In this document: positions 31,372 to 57,932 of the stretch, one piece after another | How positions within the stretch are numbered: the first letter of the stretch is position 1 | Layout: each line of letters begins with the position of its first letter | Origin: Mycolicibacterium chubuense NBB4 | GTDB taxonomy: Bacteria; Actinomycetota; Actinomycetes; Mycobacteriales; Mycobacteriaceae | NCBI RefSeq assembly: GCF_000266905.1 | Contig: NC_018027.1 | Location: 1,674,001 to 1,738,000, forward strand | Direction of reading: 5' to 3' | DNA length: 64,000 nucleotides | The notes under the pieces: model-generated | Told to the model about the DNA's origin: nothing | The model's database searches: none | Seen by the model: only the letters and a program-made list of their open reading frames with translations | Made by a program: the position numbers and the translations under genes

Positions 31372-33018
31372 ATGGCGGCGAACCCCCGTGCCGGTCAGCC
31401 GGCGCAACCCGAGGACCTGATCGACATCGCTGCGGTGGTGACGGCGTACTACACCGTCACGCCCGACCCGGACAACGTCGACCAGCAGGTCGCGTTCGGT
31501 ACGTCGGGGCATCGCGGGTCGAGCCTGGACGCGGCGTTCAATGAGGCGCACATCCTGGCCACGACGCAGGCCATCGTCGAGTACCGAAACTCGCAGAACA
31601 CCACCGGTCCGCTGTTCATCGGTCGGGACACGCACGCGCTGTCCGAGCCCGCGTGGGCGTCCGCCCTCGAGGTGCTCGCCGCCAATGACGTTGCGGTGAT
31701 GATCGATTCGGCCGATCGCTACACGCCGACCCCCGCGGTCAGCCATGCGATCCTGACTTTCAACCGGGGTCGCGACACGGCCCTGGCGGACGGGATCGTG
31801 GTGACTCCGTCGCACAACCCGCCGCGCGACGGCGGATTCAAGTACAACCCGCCCAACGGCGGGCCCGCCGACACCGACGCCACCGGCGTCATCGCCAAGC
31901 GGGCCAACGAGATCCTGCGCGACGGCCTCAAGGCGGTGAAGCGCGTCCCGCTGGCCAGGGCGATGGCACACGCACAGCGGCACCACTACCTCGACGCCTA
32001 CGTCTCGGATCTGCCGAACGTCGTCGACCTGCACGCGATCCGCGCCGAAGGCATTCGCATCGGCGCCGACCCCCTCGGCGGGGCGAGCGTCGACTACTGG
32101 GCCGCCATCGCCGAGCGGCACAACCTCGACCTGACCGTCGTCAACCCGCTCGTCGACGCGACGTGGCGATTCATGACGCTCGACACCGACGGCAAGATCC
32201 GGATGGACTGCAGTTCGCCCAACGCGATGGCTGCGCTTGTTCAAAAAGTGGTCGGCGATGCTGACTCCTATCAGATCGCGACCGGCAACGACGCCGACTC
32301 CGACCGGCACGGCATCGTGACGCCCGACGGCGGTCTGCTCAACCCGAACCACTACCTCGCGGTGGCGATTGACTATCTGTTCGCGCACCGGCCGGAGTGG
32401 GCGGCCGACACAGCCGTCGGCAAGACGGCCGTCAGTTCCTCGATCATCGACCGGGTGGTCGGCGGTCTGGGCCGCAAGCTCGTCGAGGTGCCGGTAGGCT
32501 TCAAGTGGTTCGTCGACGGGCTCATCGGCGGCACAATCGGTTTCGGCGGGGAGGAGAGCGCCGGGGCGTCGTTCCTGCGCCGCGACGGTTCGGTGTGGAC
32601 GACGGACAAGGACGGCATCATCCTGGCGCTGCTGGCCTCGGAGATCCTGGCGGTCACCGGATCGACGCCGTCGCAGCGCTATGCGGAGCTGGCCGACAAG
32701 TACGGTGCCCCGACGTATGCCCGCATCGATGCGCCGGCCAACCGTGAGCAGAAGGCGCGGCTGGCCAAGCTCTCGCCCGAGCAGGTGAGCGCCACGGAGT
32801 TGGCGGGGGAATCGATCACGGCCAAGCTGACGACCGCTCCGGGAAACGGTGCGCCTCTGGGCGGGTTGAAGGTCACGACGGAGAACGCGTGGTTCGCCGC
32901 GCGGCCGTCCGGCACCGAGGACGTGTACAAGATCTACGCCGAGTCCTTCCGCGGACCAGAGCATCTCGCCGAGGTGCAGGAGGCCGCGCGGGAAGTGGTG
33001 TCGGCGGTTATTTCGTGA
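31372..33018 (+). CDS. pgm: Alpha-D-glucose phosphate-specific phosphoglucomutase
   Basis: A 548-residue enzyme interconverting glucose-1-phosphate and glucose-6-phosphate, the entry to glycogen, trehalose and cell-wall sugar nucleotides. The features seen are [11 protein letters not shown] near residue 43, the phosphoserine loop [13 protein letters not shown] (about 143-155), the metal loop [11 protein letters not shown] (about 305-315) and the sugar loop [30 protein letters not shown] is the C-terminal phosphate-binding loop. Length matches bacterial Pgm. The next gene (MFS) overlaps its stop by 3 bases. Position beside crcB/crcB/DUF190 agrees with the mycobacterial pgmA locus. Confidence 0.95.
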
Positions 33019-51047: not shown

Positions 51048-51431
51048 CTAGCGTCGTCCACCGCCACGCCTCGGCGGGGACGGCCGGGGCGCGGGTCCCG
51101 GCCGTCCGATATCCGGGCGCCCGGGTGCGGGAGGCCGGATGTTCGGCGGCCCAGGCGGTCCCGGCGGTGCCGGCGGGCGAGGAACCGGGATGTCGATGTC
51201 GATGTCGGGGATGACATCCGGGACCCACACCGGCACCCACGGGTCGACGTAGACGGCTGGAGGCGGCGGAAATTCACAGATGAGCGTGGTGAAATTCCAG
51301 TACATGCCCGGCGGGCAAGGCGGTGGTGGCGGGGGCTGGGCCCGGCCGATCGCGGGTGAGGTGAGTTCTATGAGCGGCAGAGCTGCCAACACGGCAGCAG
51401 ATACGGCGCTGCGTTGTAGCCAAGGCTTCAT
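51048..51431 (-). CDS. Proline-rich small secreted protein
   Basis: A 127-residue exported protein. Residues 1-31 form a signal peptide (ALPLIELTSPAIGRAQ). The mature part opens with a polyproline run and a PPGMYWNFTTLICEFPPPP segment with two cysteines. It continues with Val/Asp/Pro repeats and ends in a Pro/Arg/Gly-rich basic tail. No catalytic motif is visible. Such short Pro-rich proteins with one disulfide are frequent in mycobacterial secretomes. It is divergent from a hemophore-like gene, with 370 bases between. Confidence 0.7.
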   Translation of the reverse strand: MKPWLQRSAVSAAVLAALPLIELTSPAIGRAQPPPPPPCPPGMYWNFTTLICEFPPPPAVYVDPWVPVWVPDVIPDIDIDIPVPRPPAPPGPPGPPNIRPPAPGRPDIGRPGPAPRPSPPRRGGGRR

Positions 51432-51801
51432 CGGACATCTTCTCTCGCTTGCCTCCTGCAGGGAAAGCCTACGATTCGGCTGCTGTCTGAGGGGCTCGAT
51501 TCAGCGCAGACATCAGACGACCACTGATGAATGTGCGCGCGCGACACGTCGGATCAGTGTCCCGCCGATTTGCTGACGCGGTTGGTCGGGCGCAGCGGGG
51601 TCGGTTCGGTCCGAATGGCACACGGGCGTCGATGCATTCAAAATTCTGCTCAGTGACCTTGGGAGCGCGCGCTCTGGTTCTCCAACGGCGAATACGCCAC
51701 GCGTTCGGGGCCGTGTCCTTATCGTGTGGTCATACGGTGCAGAGAGCCTTTGCGCAGAAATGTTTGCGAGAGTAGCGCCTTTCGATGAAGGAGGAGCAGC
51801 A
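51432..51801. other. Divergent promoter region between two secreted-protein genes
   Basis: 370 bases between the Pro-rich protein (minus) and the hemophore-like gene (plus). I see no gene, and no RNA or strong palindrome. AAGGAGGAGCAGCA just before 51802 is the ribosome site of the plus-strand gene. Confidence 0.5.
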
Positions 51802-52206
51802 ATGATGTTGCCATCACAACCTTTTGGAAGCCGGTCGGCAAGGGCAGCCGTGGGCGCCGTCGCAATGGCCGGTGCGGTGTTTCTCGGCGGCACCGTCACG
51901 GCAAGTGCCGAGCCGCCGGCGCCGCCGCCACCCGCGCCACCGAACTGCTCGCCCGCGGATTGGGCCGGCGTGAGGGCGGGCGTTGCCGCGGCGCTGTCGG
52001 CATACCTGTTCACCCACCCTCCGGTGAATGACTTCTTCGCGACGCTCAAAGGCCAATCCAGAGACGAGATTCAGCCGAAGGTACAGACGTATCTGGACGC
52101 CAATCCTCAGGTCCGCAGCGAACTGCAGGGCATCAGGCAACCCGCGGACGACTTCCTGGCCCGGTGCAACCAGCAACCGAATCCGCCGAACGTCCCGATT
52201 CCCTGA
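51802..52206 (+). CDS. Hemophore-related secreted protein (MHB family)
   Basis: A 134-residue exported protein. The signal peptide ends near ASAEP (about 37). A Pro-rich spacer follows, then an all-alpha domain with a conserved cysteine pair (Cys49 in PNCSPADW and Cys122 in LARCNQQ). The pattern NCSPADWAGVRAGVAAALSAY-L, THPPVN-FF and YLDANPQVRSELQGIRQP is that of the mycobacterial heme-binding/hemophore-related family (Rv0203-like). These proteins bind or shuttle heme in the envelope, although many paralogues have no proven heme binding. The start is ATG 51802 or the overlapping ATG 51805, with an AAGGAGGAG site. Confidence 0.85.
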   Translation: MMLPSQPFGSRSARAAVGAVAMAGAVFLGGTVTASAEPPAPPPPAPPNCSPADWAGVRAGVAAALSAYLFTHPPVNDFFATLKGQSRDEIQPKVQTYLDANPQVRSELQGIRQPADDFLARCNQQPNPPNVPIP

Positions 52207-52288: not shown

Positions 52289-53416
52289 CTAGACCGTCAC
52301 GGCGAGCAGAAGCCGCACCAGTTCGGCTTGGCGATGTGTCGCGGTCTTGCTGAAGACGTTGCCCAAGTGCGTTTTCACGGTATCGCGGGACAGTTGTAGG
52401 TGGTCCCCGATCGGTCCCAGACCTTCACCGTTCAGCGTGAGCTGCGCGACCGCGGTCTCGGTCTTGGTCAGACTGAACAGCTCGCGGAGCACGTCGGATG
52501 CCGGTATCGGACGCCGCTCGGGATCGACGATGACGACCTGGGCAGTTGGTCCCCGAGAAACGACCTCGGTCCTCGGATGGTTCATCGGCACGACGTGGAC
52601 AGCGTAGGGGCGACGGCCGGACGGGCGGTCACACGCCAGAGAGCCGCCATGGCGGATGCCGAACGCATCCCCGTCGAGTGCGAAGTTCAGCAAGGCCTCC
52701 AGTCGCAGGCACATCCGGGGGGCTGAAGCTGCGAGACGACCGGCGCGCGAAATCAATCCGTCGCCTTCGCGCAACATGCGCTCGGCCGCGGCGTTGGCGT
52801 GCACGAGACGCAAGCCGGCGGCGACGATGACGATCCCGTGTTCGACGTAGTCCAGTGCATCCGCGAGCTCACCGGTGCGACGTGACAAACTCGTCAGACC
52901 GTTCTGCACGCGCAGCCCGTGCTGGAGGTGCGGGACGAGCATGGTGAACAACTGTGTCAGGTCTTGGTTGTCGAATGTCTCGGAGCCTTGCGTTCCTGCG
53001 ATCAGGAAGCTCGTCGGCTCGGCTTCGTTCGTCAGCCGAACGAAGATGCCATCGGTCAGGCCGTTCGGACGAATCCAATCGTTGAAGAACTCGGCGCTTG
53101 TGCGGGGCTCGATCACTTCCGTCCCGGTGCGCAACACACCAACTGGTCCGCGCTCAACGGTCTGCAGAACATAGTCGTGGCGACCGAAGTGCTCGGCGTA
53201 GGAACCCGGTTGGGTTTCCGGTGACAAGGCGCCGGTCATCGACCGGCTGACTCCGTCGGTGAACACCAGCGACGTGGACCGCACCCGTCGCCCCGCGACG
53301 GTCGCCGTCACGAAGGTGTGATGAATGTGCGCGATCGCCTCATCCCACAAGTCCGGGGTGACCGCCGCGGCATAGATCATCGACAACATCTCTGAGAAAG
53401 CAGCGACAGTGATCAT
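52289..53416 (-). CDS. LuxR-type HTH transcriptional regulator
   Basis: A 375-residue regulator. I use ATG 53416 (MITVAAFSEMLSMIYAAAV) because the 22 residues from an earlier ATG at 53482 are Arg/Cys-rich. The N-terminal about 300 residues form a sensory region (autoinducer- or PAS-like, WDEAIAHIHHTF, and later DYVEHGIVIVAAGLRLVHAN, which reads as a PAS core). The last 65 are a GerE/LuxR HTH (FSLTKTETAVAQLTLNGEGL, SRDTVKTHLGNVFSKTATH). It is divergent from the operon of mosaic secreted proteins with 213 bases between, making it their best candidate regulator. Confidence 0.85.
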   Translation of the reverse strand: MITVAAFSEMLSMIYAAAVTPDLWDEAIAHIHHTFVTATVAGRRVRSTSLVFTDGVSRSMTGALSPETQPGSYAEHFGRHDYVLQTVERGPVGVLRTGTEVIEPRTSAEFFNDWIRPNGLTDGIFVRLTNEAEPTSFLIAGTQGSETFDNQDLTQLFTMLVPHLQHGLRVQNGLTSLSRRTGELADALDYVEHGIVIVAAGLRLVHANAAAERMLREGDGLISRAGRLAASAPRMCLRLEALLNFALDGDAFGIRHGGSLACDRPSGRRPYAVHVVPMNHPRTEVVSRGPTAQVVIVDPERRPIPASDVLRELFSLTKTETAVAQLTLNGEGLGPIGDHLQLSRDTVKTHLGNVFSKTATHRQAELVRLLLAVTV

Positions 53417-53629
53417 CAGTCCGCAACACCGCCTTCGCTCGCATCTGGAGCGGCGGCCAGCGACATCGACATCGACCGCCACGTGTCAGTAAACCTCACC
53501 CGTTCGGGCGAAGCGGGCAAAACGACGCGATGGTGTAGTTGACCCACGGTCGAGTAATCGCGACGACCGGCTCAGACGACCTCTCGACAGGGTGCGCGTC
53601 AGATCGGGCGACGAAAGGCAAGAGCAGCA

Positions 53630-54295
53630 ATGAATTTCACAAGATCAAATACTTCGAGGTTGCTGGCCGCGGTAGCTGTCGGCGCGGTCGGAATCGTCTC
53701 GGCACCGGCCGCCCACGCCGACGAATCGTGCAAGGTCGACGGCGAGTACCTGAATCTCAAAAATCGGGAGCTGGGCTACCAATCGATGTTCGTCCAAACC
53801 GACGGAACGCACTTCGGGCCAGGAATCGGAACCGCCGCCCACGGCGAGAACCCGACGTATGGCACTGTCAGCGACAGCGTATTCTCGGGCCGATTCCTGT
53901 CTTTCACGATCACGTGGAATGACAACAAGGGAAGAGCGCACTACGCGGCCACCGTCGGCGACGACGGATTCGCGCACGGCGCGGCCGACGGACCGCAGAT
54001 ACCGATCAACCTCTGGAATGCCGGATTATGGGACTCGACAACGCACATCACGTGCTCATCGACCCAAAGTCCTGCGGCGGCACACACGTTGACCGGTGAT
54101 GTGCAGCTCTATGACAAGCCCGGCGGCGACGACGCGGGTGCCGTCGTCATTGCGGAGCTCAAGAAAGGCGATGCTGTGGTACTCAACGGCCCGTGTCCCA
54201 TAGTCGCCGCCGACGCGACAAACGGCTGGTGCGTGATCACCGACACCACCAAGAACAAGACAGGCGCCGTCTGGGGGGATTTCGTCTCGAAGTGA
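53630..54295 (+). CDS. Secreted protein, domain B plus SH3-like tail
   Basis: A 221-residue exported protein with a signal peptide ending AHADES (about 30). Residues 33-145 form a beta-rich domain (called B here) bounded by cysteines, with LSFTITWNDNKGRAHYAAT at its heart. Residues about 152-221 form a bacterial-SH3-like unit (VQLYDKPGG, ELKKGDAVVLNGPCP, GWCVITD, AVWGDFV) with a cysteine pair. Domain B reappears as the C-terminal half of the next protein (LSFTIVWYDKQGGHAE). The start ATG 53630 has an AAGGCAAGAGC site. Function is unknown; SH3-like tails often bind peptidoglycan or peptides. It is the first gene of a three-gene run. Confidence 0.8.
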   Translation: MNFTRSNTSRLLAAVAVGAVGIVSAPAAHADESCKVDGEYLNLKNRELGYQSMFVQTDGTHFGPGIGTAAHGENPTYGTVSDSVFSGRFLSFTITWNDNKGRAHYAATVGDDGFAHGAADGPQIPINLWNAGLWDSTTHITCSSTQSPAAAHTLTGDVQLYDKPGGDDAGAVVIAELKKGDAVVLNGPCPIVAADATNGWCVITDTTKNKTGAVWGDFVSK

Positions 54296-54384
54296 CGTCG
54301 CCGCGCACTATCTCCGACGACCTCGAACCAAGGAATCAGCGGCGTTTGAGTACCGGCCACTCGCTCGCCGGGGAAAGGAGGGGG

Positions 54385-55218
54385 ATGGTCAGCGTCAAGT
54401 TCGCCCGGCGTCACCGTCGCGTCGCGACGGGAATGATGACCGGCATTCTCACGACCGCTCTGGTGCTCGCCCCACCCGCGGCCGCGCTCCATGTCGAGCA
54501 ATACATCGAAGTGCCGCAATGCCAACCGGCTACGAGCCAAGTGTGTCCGCAGAGCCCGGAAGTGCGGTTCACCGCTGGACAGAACGACCGGATTCAAGCG
54601 CAGTTCACCGCGAATGCCAACCACTGCTCGGACATTCTCGTGCGCTTCAACGTCGACAACTACCCGCAGAGCGAGTGGCTTCGAGTCGGACCGGGTCAGA
54701 CCGTCACCAGCCCGTTCTTCGACAGGAGCGGAGAGCATGTCCTCAGCGTGACTGCCCAAGGTGTCGAAGGTGGCTGTAACACCGGTGTTCTCAATGCATG
54801 GGGTGGCACAGTTCGCATCGATTCGGTTGACGTTGTGGGACCCGCTCCCCATCCCGTCGCCGATTCCACGCCGGCACCTTGTTCGTGGAGGTACTCCGGC
54901 GGCGTCGTCATCGACCAGGACAACGGTATCCGGGTCGACCTCGACCAGTGGCACGATCTCACGGCCATGGGTCCCGCGCATCTGTACGCGCCGGGGTCGA
55001 CCGTCCAGTCCAATCGTGGAGAGGTCATCGGAGCAGGCGGTGAGGGAACGAACCTGAGCTTCACCATCGTGTGGTACGACAAGCAGGGAGGGCATGCCGA
55101 GACCAACGATTACACCGGCAGTATCGACCCACAATGGGGGACGCTGGGCGGAACCACCGTCAACAACGCCGGAGTCACCAATCACTGGTCGGCGCAAGAA
55201 CATTGGATGTGCACGTGA
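54385..55218 (+). CDS. Secreted two-domain protein (A plus B)
   Basis: A 277-residue exported protein. I start at ATG 54385, placed behind AAAGGAGGGGG and directly before a signal peptide ending PPAAALHV. Residues 36-148 form domain A, with four cysteines in CQPATSQVC, ANHCSDI and GGCNTG. Residues about 165-277 form domain B, opening CSWRYSGG and containing LSFTIVWYDKQGGHAE, ending MCT. Domain A is the whole mature part of the next protein, and domain B the first domain of the previous one. Longer in-frame sequence upstream is not gene-like. The gene is 89 bases after its neighbour. No enzyme motif is visible. Confidence 0.8.
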   Translation: MVSVKFARRHRRVATGMMTGILTTALVLAPPAAALHVEQYIEVPQCQPATSQVCPQSPEVRFTAGQNDRIQAQFTANANHCSDILVRFNVDNYPQSEWLRVGPGQTVTSPFFDRSGEHVLSVTAQGVEGGCNTGVLNAWGGTVRIDSVDVVGPAPHPVADSTPAPCSWRYSGGVVIDQDNGIRVDLDQWHDLTAMGPAHLYAPGSTVQSNRGEVIGAGGEGTNLSFTIVWYDKQGGHAETNDYTGSIDPQWGTLGGTTVNNAGVTNHWSAQEHWMCT

Positions 55219-55340
55219 GGGCGTCACCGCCGGTGGGCCAGGGAGCGACCACCGAATCGTTGAGTGTCGGCAGCACCGCGGCAGGGCGTCTTGTCCCTCC
55301 GTGACTCACTCGGTCGAAATCTCTGTCGAAAGGAACATTG

Positions 55341-55799
55341 ATGTCTCGCAACAATCTCCGCCTCGCGCGGTTGGCTGCCGAAGTCTGTGTCATGGTCACC
55401 GCGACCACTGCCGCCGGGCTGGCGATCGCCTGGCCCGCATCGGCAAAGCCTTACGTGCAGGACAGCTACATCGAGGTGCCGCAATGCCAGCCGGCGACGA
55501 GCCAGCTCTGTCCGCAGATCCCGACCGCGAGCGTCGGCGCGATCATGGCCCCCACCGTGTCGTTCACGGCCAACGCCAACCACTGCTCCGACATCATCGC
55601 TCACGTCTTCATCGACGGGGAGGAATTCGGCTCCGACCTCCTCGAGCCGGGGGAGACCACTCCCGAGTTCCCGTTGGAGGATCTACGACCCCACACGGTC
55701 GGCATACAGGCCGAGGGCGTTCCTGGCGGCTGCAACCGCGGCTGGGTCGACGCGTGGGGCGGGACTCTTCATTTCAAGGGGACCCTGCCACTGTCGTGA
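55341..55799 (+). CDS. Secreted single-domain protein (A)
   Basis: A 152-residue exported protein starting at ATG 55341; a TTG directly precedes it. The signal peptide ends WPASAKP. The mature part is domain A: YIEVPQCQPATSQLCPQIP, SFTANANHCSDIIAH, GVPGGCNRGWVDAWGGTLHF. All four cysteines and the NHCSDI and AWGGT motifs are shared with the first half of the previous protein, and the YIEVPQCQPATSQ segment is identical. It is clearly a duplicate by sequence. The FUSC gene follows after 36 bases, possibly in the same transcript. Confidence 0.8.
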   Translation: MSRNNLRLARLAAEVCVMVTATTAAGLAIAWPASAKPYVQDSYIEVPQCQPATSQLCPQIPTASVGAIMAPTVSFTANANHCSDIIAHVFIDGEEFGSDLLEPGETTPEFPLEDLRPHTVGIQAEGVPGGCNRGWVDAWGGTLHFKGTLPLS

Positions 55800-55835: not shown

Positions 55836-57932
55836 ATGCCGGACAATCAGCGGATGCAGACGTGGTCCGTGAGGCAGGTGGCCAGGCGGCTGGTCCCGAC
55901 CGATCCGGGGCAGGTCCGGCTGCGCTCGGCCGCGGCGACGACGACGTCGCTGATCATCGCCATCGTCGCGCTGCTGGGTTTCACGCGAGTGACCGGACAG
56001 CCGATCACCGTGGCGATGCTCGGCGCGGTGGTGGCGATGCAGGCCTCGGCTGCGGTCAAGGATCGCGACCAGCGCAGCCGCGTCATCACCACACTGTGGC
56101 TGTTCGTGCCGTCGATCTGCGCGGTGACGCTGGCGGCGTTGCTGACACCGCACGGCAAGATCGCCGACGTCGGGTTCATCGTCGTGCTGTTCGCCGCGGT
56201 CTGGGTCCGACGGTACGGCCCGCGCGGCAACGCGCTCGGGGTGATCGCGTTCATCTCCTACTTCTTCGCCCTGTTCCTGCGGGTCTCGATCAGCCAGGTG
56301 CCGGTGTTGGCGGTGGCCGTCGCCGTCGGGATCGCCTCCTCGTTGTTCGTGCGCGTGGTTCTGTTCCCCGACCGCCCCCGTGCCGAGGCACGGCGTCTGA
56401 TGTCGGCTCTGCGTGCAGCGTCGACCGTCGCGCTGGACGCGGCGGCCGCTCCCGACGACGGTATCGAGGCGTTGCGGCGACGAATGGACCAGCTGGGCGA
56501 GACCGCGCTGCTGATCGACGACTGGCTGGACCGCCATGAGGCCGCGAAGTCGCTCAGCGTGACGAGCAAGGACCTCGCGCGCCGGGTCTTCGAGGCGCAG
56601 ATCATGCTCGAGCAGTCTGCGGTCCTGCTCTGGCGCCTGGGTTCTCCGCACCGGTGGCCGGCCGACGTTCGGGACGCGGTCACGGCACTGCGGACGACGT
56701 TGACCAACGACCCGGCCGACGACGAACTGCGAGAGGCGCGCCGGCACGGAGCGGCATCGGCGGAGCGGGCTGATCTCTCGACACCGGAGGGCTTGGCCAC
56801 GGTGGCGGTGTTCCGGGCGATGCAGGCGCACTTGGCCATACATCACATCACCACCAATGCGCTCGGTGTCACCGACGAAGCCCCCCAAGAGGAGCACGAC
56901 GACTCCCGAGACGCCGACGAGGACGAGGACTCGGGGCTGCATCCCACCACCAAGACCGCCGTTCAAGTCGCGATCGCCACCAGCGCGGCCACGATTCTGG
57001 GCGAGCTCATCTCGCCGGATCGGTGGTACTGGGCCGTGCTGACCGCCTTCCTCGTCTTCACCGGTGTCACCACCCGCGGGGAACTCTTGTCGCGCGTCGG
57101 CCATCGCATCATCGGCACCATCGCCGGTGTGGTGGCGGGGGTGCTGTTGGCGGCCGTCGTCGGCCAGCACCCGGCCGTGCAGATCGTCGTGCTGCTGATC
57201 TGCGTCTTCTGCGCGTTCTACCTCGTCACGGTCGCCTACGTGTGGCTCACGTTCTTCGTGACGGTGCTGTTGGCCATGCTGTACGGGCTGCTGGGCAACT
57301 TCAGCCTGCAGGTGCTGGAGTTGAGGATCGCCGAGACCGCGGCGGGCGGGCTGGTCGGGGTCGCCGCGGCGTACTTCGTCTTCTCCACCAAGACCCGCGC
57401 CACCTTCGTCGAGAAGGTGCACGAGTATCTCGATCGCGTGCAGGAGGTGATCGACTCGAGTGTGGATTCCGTGCTCGCTCCCGGCGGTGAGACCGACCTG
57501 GTGGCACAGTCTCGCCAGATGGACAACGCGCTGCTCGCCGTGATCACGGCCGGCAAGCCGTTGCAGATCGGGCCCACATCGGACCTGCGTCGCGGTGTGC
57601 GGCGGCTGGTCCGCGGATTGCAGATCGGCAACAGGTCGGCGCACGCGTTGGCTCGAGCCGGCGTGGCCGCCGCTGCAGCGCAGCAGGATTCGGCGCCGCC
57701 GGAGGCGACTGCCGATGCGCTTCGGCACGCAGTCGCCCAGACCTGCGCCACAATCGCCGTCGTGAGAACCGTCGCCTCGGGGGAGCAGGCGGCCGCCTCC
57801 GACCGCCGGAGCGACCAGGTGATCGCCGATGCTCTCGACATGCCGGAACTGCCACCGGGACCCGTGCGCGCCGCGATCCGCGCCATGAACACTCTCGATC
57901 GCACCCTGGCCGAGGTGACCAACCGCGTGTGA
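55836..57932 (+). CDS. FUSC-family membrane protein
   Basis: A 698-residue protein with two hydrophobic bundles of about five to six helices (residues 35-175 and 380-530). They are separated by a hydrophilic, partly coiled-coil region with an acidic stretch (EEHDDSRDADEDEDSG). The second bundle has AVLTAFLVFTGVTTRGE and the RIIGTIAGVVAGVLLA helix typical of the FUSC/aromatic-acid-exporter-like family. The C-terminal about 170 residues are cytoplasmic helices. Members export aromatic acids or act in envelope stress; the substrate here is open. Two starts (55836, 55854) are possible. Its nearness to the secreted trio makes a secretion-related role conceivable but unproven. Confidence 0.85.
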   Translation: MPDNQRMQTWSVRQVARRLVPTDPGQVRLRSAAATTTSLIIAIVALLGFTRVTGQPITVAMLGAVVAMQASAAVKDRDQRSRVITTLWLFVPSICAVTLAALLTPHGKIADVGFIVVLFAAVWVRRYGPRGNALGVIAFISYFFALFLRVSISQVPVLAVAVAVGIASSLFVRVVLFPDRPRAEARRLMSALRAASTVALDAAAAPDDGIEALRRRMDQLGETALLIDDWLDRHEAAKSLSVTSKDLARRVFEAQIMLEQSAVLLWRLGSPHRWPADVRDAVTALRTTLTNDPADDELREARRHGAASAERADLSTPEGLATVAVFRAMQAHLAIHHITTNALGVTDEAPQEEHDDSRDADEDEDSGLHPTTKTAVQVAIATSAATILGELISPDRWYWAVLTAFLVFTGVTTRGELLSRVGHRIIGTIAGVVAGVLLAAVVGQHPAVQIVVLLICVFCAFYLVTVAYVWLTFFVTVLLAMLYGLLGNFSLQVLELRIAETAAGGLVGVAAAYFVFSTKTRATFVEKVHEYLDRVQEVIDSSVDSVLAPGGETDLVAQSRQMDNALLAVITAGKPLQIGPTSDLRRGVRRLVRGLQIGNRSAHALARAGVAAAAAQQDSAPPEATADALRHAVAQTCATIAVVRTVASGEQAAASDRRSDQVIADALDMPELPPGPVRAAIRAMNTLDRTLAEVTNRV

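What the first reader, a model, noticed from the sequence alone, without database searches (positions are those of the whole stretch)
53630..55799. Mosaic trio of secreted proteins sharing two cysteine domains
Three consecutive secreted proteins are built from two modules. The first is B plus an SH3-like tail, the second A plus B, the third A alone. Domain A is marked by YIEVPQCQPATSQ-CPQ, ANHCSDI and AWGGT. Domain B is marked by LSFTI-W-D--G-AH. The A copies share an identical run of 13 residues and the DNA there is nearly the same, so duplication and shuffling were fairly recent. I know of no named family for A or B. The arrangement suggests proteins that assemble with each other, or graded forms of a surface or effector complex. 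A LuxR-type regulator is divergent at one side and a FUSC membrane protein lies at the other.
Basis: partly seen in the sequence, partly recalled or inferred. Interest (0 to 1): 0.7.

Follow-up and report, generated by a model that had tools for sequence, protein, structure and literature searches.

The report
Mix-and-match mycobacterial surface protein trio
Three neighbouring genes of a Mycobacterium encode proteins, likely exported to the cell surface, that share reusable modules found in other combinations in related bacteria; two modules are predicted to fold like a sugar-binding jelly roll and like avidin, so the set would let the bacterium vary what its surface holds on to.

The parts
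53630..54295 (+). Gene 1: predicted exported protein, B plus S (221 aa)
   Evidence: ORF; 19 of the 182 sequences in hand have B-S order
53729..54055 (+). Module B of gene 1, predicted avidin-like eight-stranded barrel, Cys34 and Cys142 at its ends
54074..54292 (+). Module S, predicted bacterial SH3 tail with Cys189 and Cys201
54385..55218 (+). Gene 2: predicted exported protein, A plus B (277 aa)
   Evidence: ORF; 42 of the 182 sequences in hand have A-B order
54487..54840 (+). Module A of gene 2, four-cysteine predicted jelly roll (Cys46, 54, 81, 131)
   Evidence: Cysteines in 131-132 of 132 distinct A sequences; pLDDT 81-97 by blocks of ten; fold rows
54880..55212 (+). Module B of gene 2, predicted avidin-like barrel (Trp230, Tyr243, Trp268)
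55341..55799 (+). Gene 3: predicted exported protein, A alone (152 aa)
   Evidence: ORF; 86 proteins at E up to 0.001
55461..55790 (+). Module A of gene 3
   Evidence: 43% identical to A of gene 2; other side of a 100/100 branch
52289..53482 (-). Divergent LuxR-type regulator (neighbour; role in the set unproven)
   Evidence: Pfam GerE E 1.1e-9
55836..57932 (+). FUSC-type membrane protein (neighbour, not found beside the homologous pairs)
   Evidence: Pfam FUSC_2 E 1e-21; no match in L037 and L039

Best explanation
Three neighbouring Mycobacterium genes encode proteins, likely exported, built from three reusable modules (A, predicted jelly roll; B, predicted avidin-like barrel; S, predicted bacterial SH3) that would together form a wall-held surface assembly. 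Shown: the module orders B-S, A-B, A; the same modules in other combinations in relatives (A-S, and S or A behind a CAP-type domain); independent variation of B and S. Predicted: the three folds. Inferred: S grips peptidoglycan and so holds gene 1 in the wall; the B barrels of genes 1 and 2 pair, or hold a small ligand; A of genes 2 and 3 binds glycans and may pair; gene 2, having both A and B, would be the bridge between gene 1 and gene 3. Swapping S or B would re-target the assembly without changing its partners.
For: Folds. Partnership of A and B: fused in gene 2 and in 42 of the 182 sequences in hand, a set gathered with these very proteins as queries; adjacent as separate genes in G335 and G087, so gene-3 orthologues of 75% identity or more follow a B gene in 3 of 3 genomes read, the window included. 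Homologues of two or all three genes share exact longest-contig length and source in seven cases: all three at 1109774, 7040 and 9989 bases; two at 32186, 253457, 3407 and 1668. Swapping: 28 B-S proteins, 378 pairs, Spearman 0.09 (p 0.10) between B and S identity; 25 pairs with B at least 65% and S at most 45%, 37 with S at least 65% and B at most 40%, 48 with both at least 65%. P0105, P0106 and P0109 have B 77-79% like the second B-S gene of the window's genome and S 71-76% like gene 1.
Against: No binding, localisation or complex was tested. The bridge gene is dispensable: no A-B gene was found in G335 or G087, and of 396 genomes only the window's own and G008 gave a match over the whole of gene 2. 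A relative of gene 3 in G144 (59% identical) has a second A gene beside it and no B in the 13.5 kb read. Of 20 stretches fetched around A or B hits, only 3 hold both. Pfam gives the window's own S no match. The fold of A matches many unrelated jelly rolls at similar Z, so glycan binding is a guess from class. Equal contig lengths do not give gene order, and for short contigs such equality also arises by chance: 2130 and 1427 bases recur between different sources.
Confidence: 0.33

Rival explanations
1. Ligand scavengers: the B barrel binds a small molecule (biotin or another hydrophobic compound) and A or S merely holds it at the surface; no defined complex among the three.
For: Avidin-like fold in both B domains. 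Trp230 is kept in 81 of 84 distinct B sequences, an aromatic residue at Tyr243 in 83 of 84, Trp268 in 78 of the 78 without a gap. A local profile alignment pairs the first two with what I recall as avidin Trp70 and Phe79, score 21.4 against at most 17.7 in 200 shuffles. Trp70 and Trp110 together matter for biotin binding of chicken avidin (PMC8033661, passages).
Against: The same test with streptavidin is no better than shuffles (13.0 against a maximum of 18.3). A larger B profile gives weaker scores (17.1 for avidin, 14.5 for streptavidin); against the two avidins together it scores 16.3 in a different register, and 1 of 200 shuffles does better. No Pfam Avidin match in 22 B members and no avidin among the 5 PDB rows of the B profile. 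The hydrogen-bonding biotin residues could not be mapped.
Confidence: 0.27
2. Plain paralogues: independent accessory exoproteins that share modules by descent and sit together only because of duplication, each acting alone.
For: Patchy presence (some part of gene 2 matches in 31 of 396 genomes; of gene 1 in 20 of 396); the modules also occur alone and scattered, as in G144 with 16 B matches.
Against: The A copies split long ago, yet B-type and A-type genes are neighbours in three species and share contig lengths in seven cases.
Confidence: 0.28
3. Variable antagonism or phage-contact factors: reassorting heads and tails change who or what the cell binds, as in polymorphic surface or toxin systems.
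For: Independent variation of B and S, patchy distribution and expansion in one species.
Against: No toxin, enzyme or immunity family among the matches of the three proteins; gene 2 has no match in 50,697 phage or 72,556 plasmid records.
Confidence: 0.1

Closest known systems
Avidin / streptavidin family (Pfam PF01382), with fibropellin avidin-like domains that do not bind biotin
   Same: B is predicted as the same eight-stranded barrel in two separately modelled proteins. Fibropellins do not bind biotin (PMC8033661, passages); that they are extracellular multidomain proteins is recalled.
   Different: No Pfam Avidin match; sequence link weak and not seen with streptavidin; joined to SH3 or jelly-roll modules
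Jelly-roll binding modules: CBM35/CBM36, Bc2L-C N-terminal lectin, C1q head
   Different: 4-13% identity; best Pfam match among 22 A members is Cadherin-like at E 0.0065 in one member; four conserved cysteines of its own
Bacterial SH3 (SH3b; Pfam SH3_3, PF08239)
   Different: All these matches are under Pfam's cut-off of 27 bits; the window's own S has none; invariant Trp54, Trp69 and Gly70 in 18 diverse S sequences
CAP-domain secreted proteins (PF00188)
   Different: The window trio has no CAP domain

Membership tests
Avidin family (PF01382) | Eight-stranded meander barrel of avidin type | tested here: met
Avidin family (PF01382) | Match to the Pfam Avidin profile | tested here: not met
   Not among matches of the window proteins at E up to 1 nor of 22 B members at E up to 10 (the filters drop most matches above about 0.1)
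Avidin family (PF01382) | Pocket aromatics equivalent to avidin Trp70 and Phe79 | tested here: inconclusive
   Local alignment with avidin supports it; streptavidin and the larger profile do not
Avidin family (PF01382) | Biotin binding and oligomerisation | not testable with these tools
   Needs protein
Bacterial SH3 (SH3_3, PF08239) | SH3b barrel fold | tested here: met
Bacterial SH3 (SH3_3, PF08239) | Pfam SH3_3 above its cut-off | tested here: not met
   Window S none; relatives 16.7-20.3 bits against 27
Bacterial SH3 (SH3_3, PF08239) | Binding to peptidoglycan | not testable with these tools
   Needs protein
CBM35/CBM6-like modules | Jelly-roll beta-sandwich | tested here: met
CBM35/CBM6-like modules | Sequence profile match | tested here: not met
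   No CBM family among the 6 families matched by 22 A members (the filters drop most matches above about 0.1)
CBM35/CBM6-like modules | Glycan and calcium binding | not testable with these tools
   Needs protein

The most novel reading that the evidence does not exclude
Mycobacteria own a private, freely reassorting kit of surface modules: a genus-specific branch of avidin-fold barrels (B) that serve as interchangeable heads or couplers, exchangeable SH3 wall anchors (S), and a four-cysteine lectin-like jelly roll (A). In this trio the kit is arranged as a chain, wall-S-B:B-A:A, with gene 2 as the bridge.
Probability: 0.2. Interest if true: 0.65.

Novelty: new variant of a known kind. Interest (0 to 1): 0.42.

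Why it matters
If right, it gives structure-based names to two unnamed exported modules of mycobacteria, shows recombination of binding heads and wall anchors between species, and offers a simple testable model of a multi-protein surface complex in this genus. It would also extend avidin-type barrels to a role that may not involve biotin.

Tried and rejected
Recent duplication of A: rejected by tree and codon comparison. Phage or plasmid origin: gene 2 has no match. Chance similarity of B with B: the bare pair does not exceed shuffles, so an intermediate and the folds were needed. Homology of B to avidin by sequence: mixed, left open. Profile searches of solved structures with B-S, A-B, B and A gave nothing significant (best E 0.56, 0.43, 0.14, none). 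Foldseek alone gave weak E-values (best avidin 0.02 for P0001, at probability 0.99) and, for the two-domain P0002, top rows over the whole chain with rmsd above 20 that I did not use; VIA-align only re-aligns Foldseek's own candidates. Presence of true avidins in the class: 0 of 197 genomes, but the 14 controls were also silent, so no conclusion. Contexts: LuxR and FUSC not conserved as such. No promoter-like site, and one terminator-like site on the other strand, no more than in shuffles. PHROGs: best match E 0.0067 to a family of unknown function, in the tail of gene 1. Named-genome scan: one search found none, one (a groundwater Mycobacterium MAG, contig of the same length as G335:C16). Seven paper searches listed no paper on these modules; three showed only part of their hits (10 of 222, 15 of 39, 8 of 30); I saw listings and abstract starts, and of PMC8033661 the abstract, outline and passages. 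The genome searches score a capped number of candidates, so their counts are lower bounds. Rows covering less than about 95 model positions of A were left out of the tree, and of two A genes in L044 one was kept.

Full report
What is there. Three ORFs on the + strand, 53630-54295, 54385-55218 and 55341-55799, are separated by 89 and 122 bases. All three start like Sec-exported proteins (read directly). Their modules are B-S, A-B and A. Neither Pfam nor NCBIfam has a match for them above cut-off (the one listed Pfam row, DUF7327 for gene 3, is E 0.35).

The modules are real families. Protein searches found 86, 36 and 88 proteins for genes 3, 1 and 2 (the sets overlap and include the window's own). 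With profiles built from the window and one paralogue, the 182 sequences in hand are A 102, A-B 42, B-S 19, S 15, B 3, A-S 1. The set was gathered with these proteins as queries, some single-module rows are fragments, and improved models later found S in two of the three called B alone. In A, four cysteines are kept in 131-132 of 132 distinct sequences. In B, Trp230, an aromatic at 243 and Trp268 of gene 2 are kept in 81 of 84, 83 of 84 and 78 of 78 ungapped distinct sequences.

Is B an avidin? By sequence the answer is open. The 22-row B profile aligns to chicken avidin locally (28 columns, FGFTVNW with LSFTIVW and VFTG with DYTG) at a score of 21.4, above all 200 shuffles (maximum 17.7), but streptavidin scores 13.0, inside its shuffles (maximum 18.3). 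An 85-row profile scores lower (17.1 and 14.5); against the two avidins together it scores 16.3 in another register, and 1 of 200 column shuffles did better. No B member matches Pfam Avidin. I therefore call it avidin-like in predicted fold and do not file it as an avidin.

How old is the A duplication? In a tree of 154 A rows, gene 3 lies among 63 rows and gene 2 among the other 91, the branch between them 100/100 (few columns, bootstrap not fully settled, root only for drawing). The shared 17-residue stretch has 12 of 16 same-residue codons identical between the two window copies, 12 of 16 between gene 3 and its G087 orthologue, 11 of 16 with G335. The near-identical DNA is best read as protein constraint.

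Where the shuffling is. Among 28 distinct B-S proteins (378 pairs) identity of B and identity of S are uncorrelated (Spearman 0.09, p 0.10): 48 pairs have both at least 65%, 25 have B at least 65% with S at most 45%, 37 have S at least 65% with B at most 40% (pairs are not independent). At a 60% threshold there are 12 B types and 8 S types in 16 combinations; 3 B types occur with more than one S and 4 S types with more than one B. At a 50% threshold S collapses to 2 types and no B type has more than one S. The window's genome has two B-S genes, gene 1 and one at C3:452843; P0105, P0106 and P0109 combine the B type of the second (77-79%) with the S type of the first (71-76%). S also stands behind A (P0111, S 70% like the window's) and behind a CAP domain (P0110, P0117), and A stands behind a CAP-like part in G204 (L045; Pfam is silent on it).

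Who has it. Some part of gene 2 matches in 31 of 396 genomes of the genus, the window's own included; only the own genome and G008 match over the whole length. Some part of gene 1, often S alone, matches in 20 of 396. The B profile matches in 31 of 297, with 16 matches in G144. Across the order, B in 2 of 200 and A in 1 of 200 genomes, all in 1 of 60 genera; an A/A-B profile in 8 of 148 relatives, 1 of 36 genera. Gene 2 matches no plasmid or phage record. The genus is Mycobacterium: the G335 contig has the length of a named groundwater Mycobacterium MAG contig that encodes the same kind of protein.

Are A and B partners? They are fused in gene 2. Around gene-3 orthologues of at least 75% identity a B gene lies directly upstream in G335 and G087 (3 of 3 genomes with the window, where the gene before gene 3 is A-B and the one before that B-S); in both no A-B gene was found. 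The G144 relative at 59% has no B nearby, and only 3 of 20 fetched stretches hold both modules. Proteins of all three kinds share exact longest-contig length and source at 1109774, 7040 and 9989 bases, two kinds at 32186, 253457, 3407 and 1668. I infer shared contigs; order there is unknown, and for the shorter lengths chance is possible, since 2130 and 1427 recur between different sources.

Mechanism. The best reading is a wall-held surface set: S as anchor (a known role of SH3b domains in wall enzymes, recalled), B as coupler or ligand holder (avidins form dimers and tetramers, and fibropellin domains of this kind do not bind biotin; PMC8033661 passages), A as glycan-binding head, gene 2 as bridge. 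Each functional step is inferred. That the bridge was not found in two species, and that A's fold class is broad, keep the confidence at one third.

Novelty. Folds are known, the sequence families are unnamed in the libraries searched, and the free exchange of B and S is the most unusual part. Seven paper searches listed no work on these modules in mycobacteria, three of them showing only part of their hits.

Noticed in passing
window 51748-52206 (+): Haemophore-related secreted protein (Pfam MHB E 5e-30; NCBIfam MTB_hemophore E 3e-25), just beyond the LuxR-type gene.
   Followed up: no
window 51048-51431 (-): Small proline-rich, apparently exported protein without a clear family.
   Followed up: no
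L003 1384-2181 and 2511-3257: Second B-S gene of the same genome, with a LuxR-type regulator close by on the other strand; G335 also has a LuxR-type ATPase regulator upstream of its B-S and A pair. LuxR regulators near B genes may be more than chance.
   Followed up: partly
G144 (for example L066, L086, L087): One species carries 16 B matches, a large expansion.
   Followed up: no
L012 207-443 (-): Short frame in G145:C48 in which the start motif of A runs straight into B, like a decayed deletion form of an A-B gene.
   Followed up: no
L039 6601-7566 (-): The B gene next to the gene-3 orthologue in G087 leaves its reading frame within the tail, compared with P0103; decay or sequencing error.
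   Followed up: no
L023 865-2007 (-): B followed by a DUF4189-like domain (E 7e-5, just under the cut-off): yet another partner of B.
   Followed up: no
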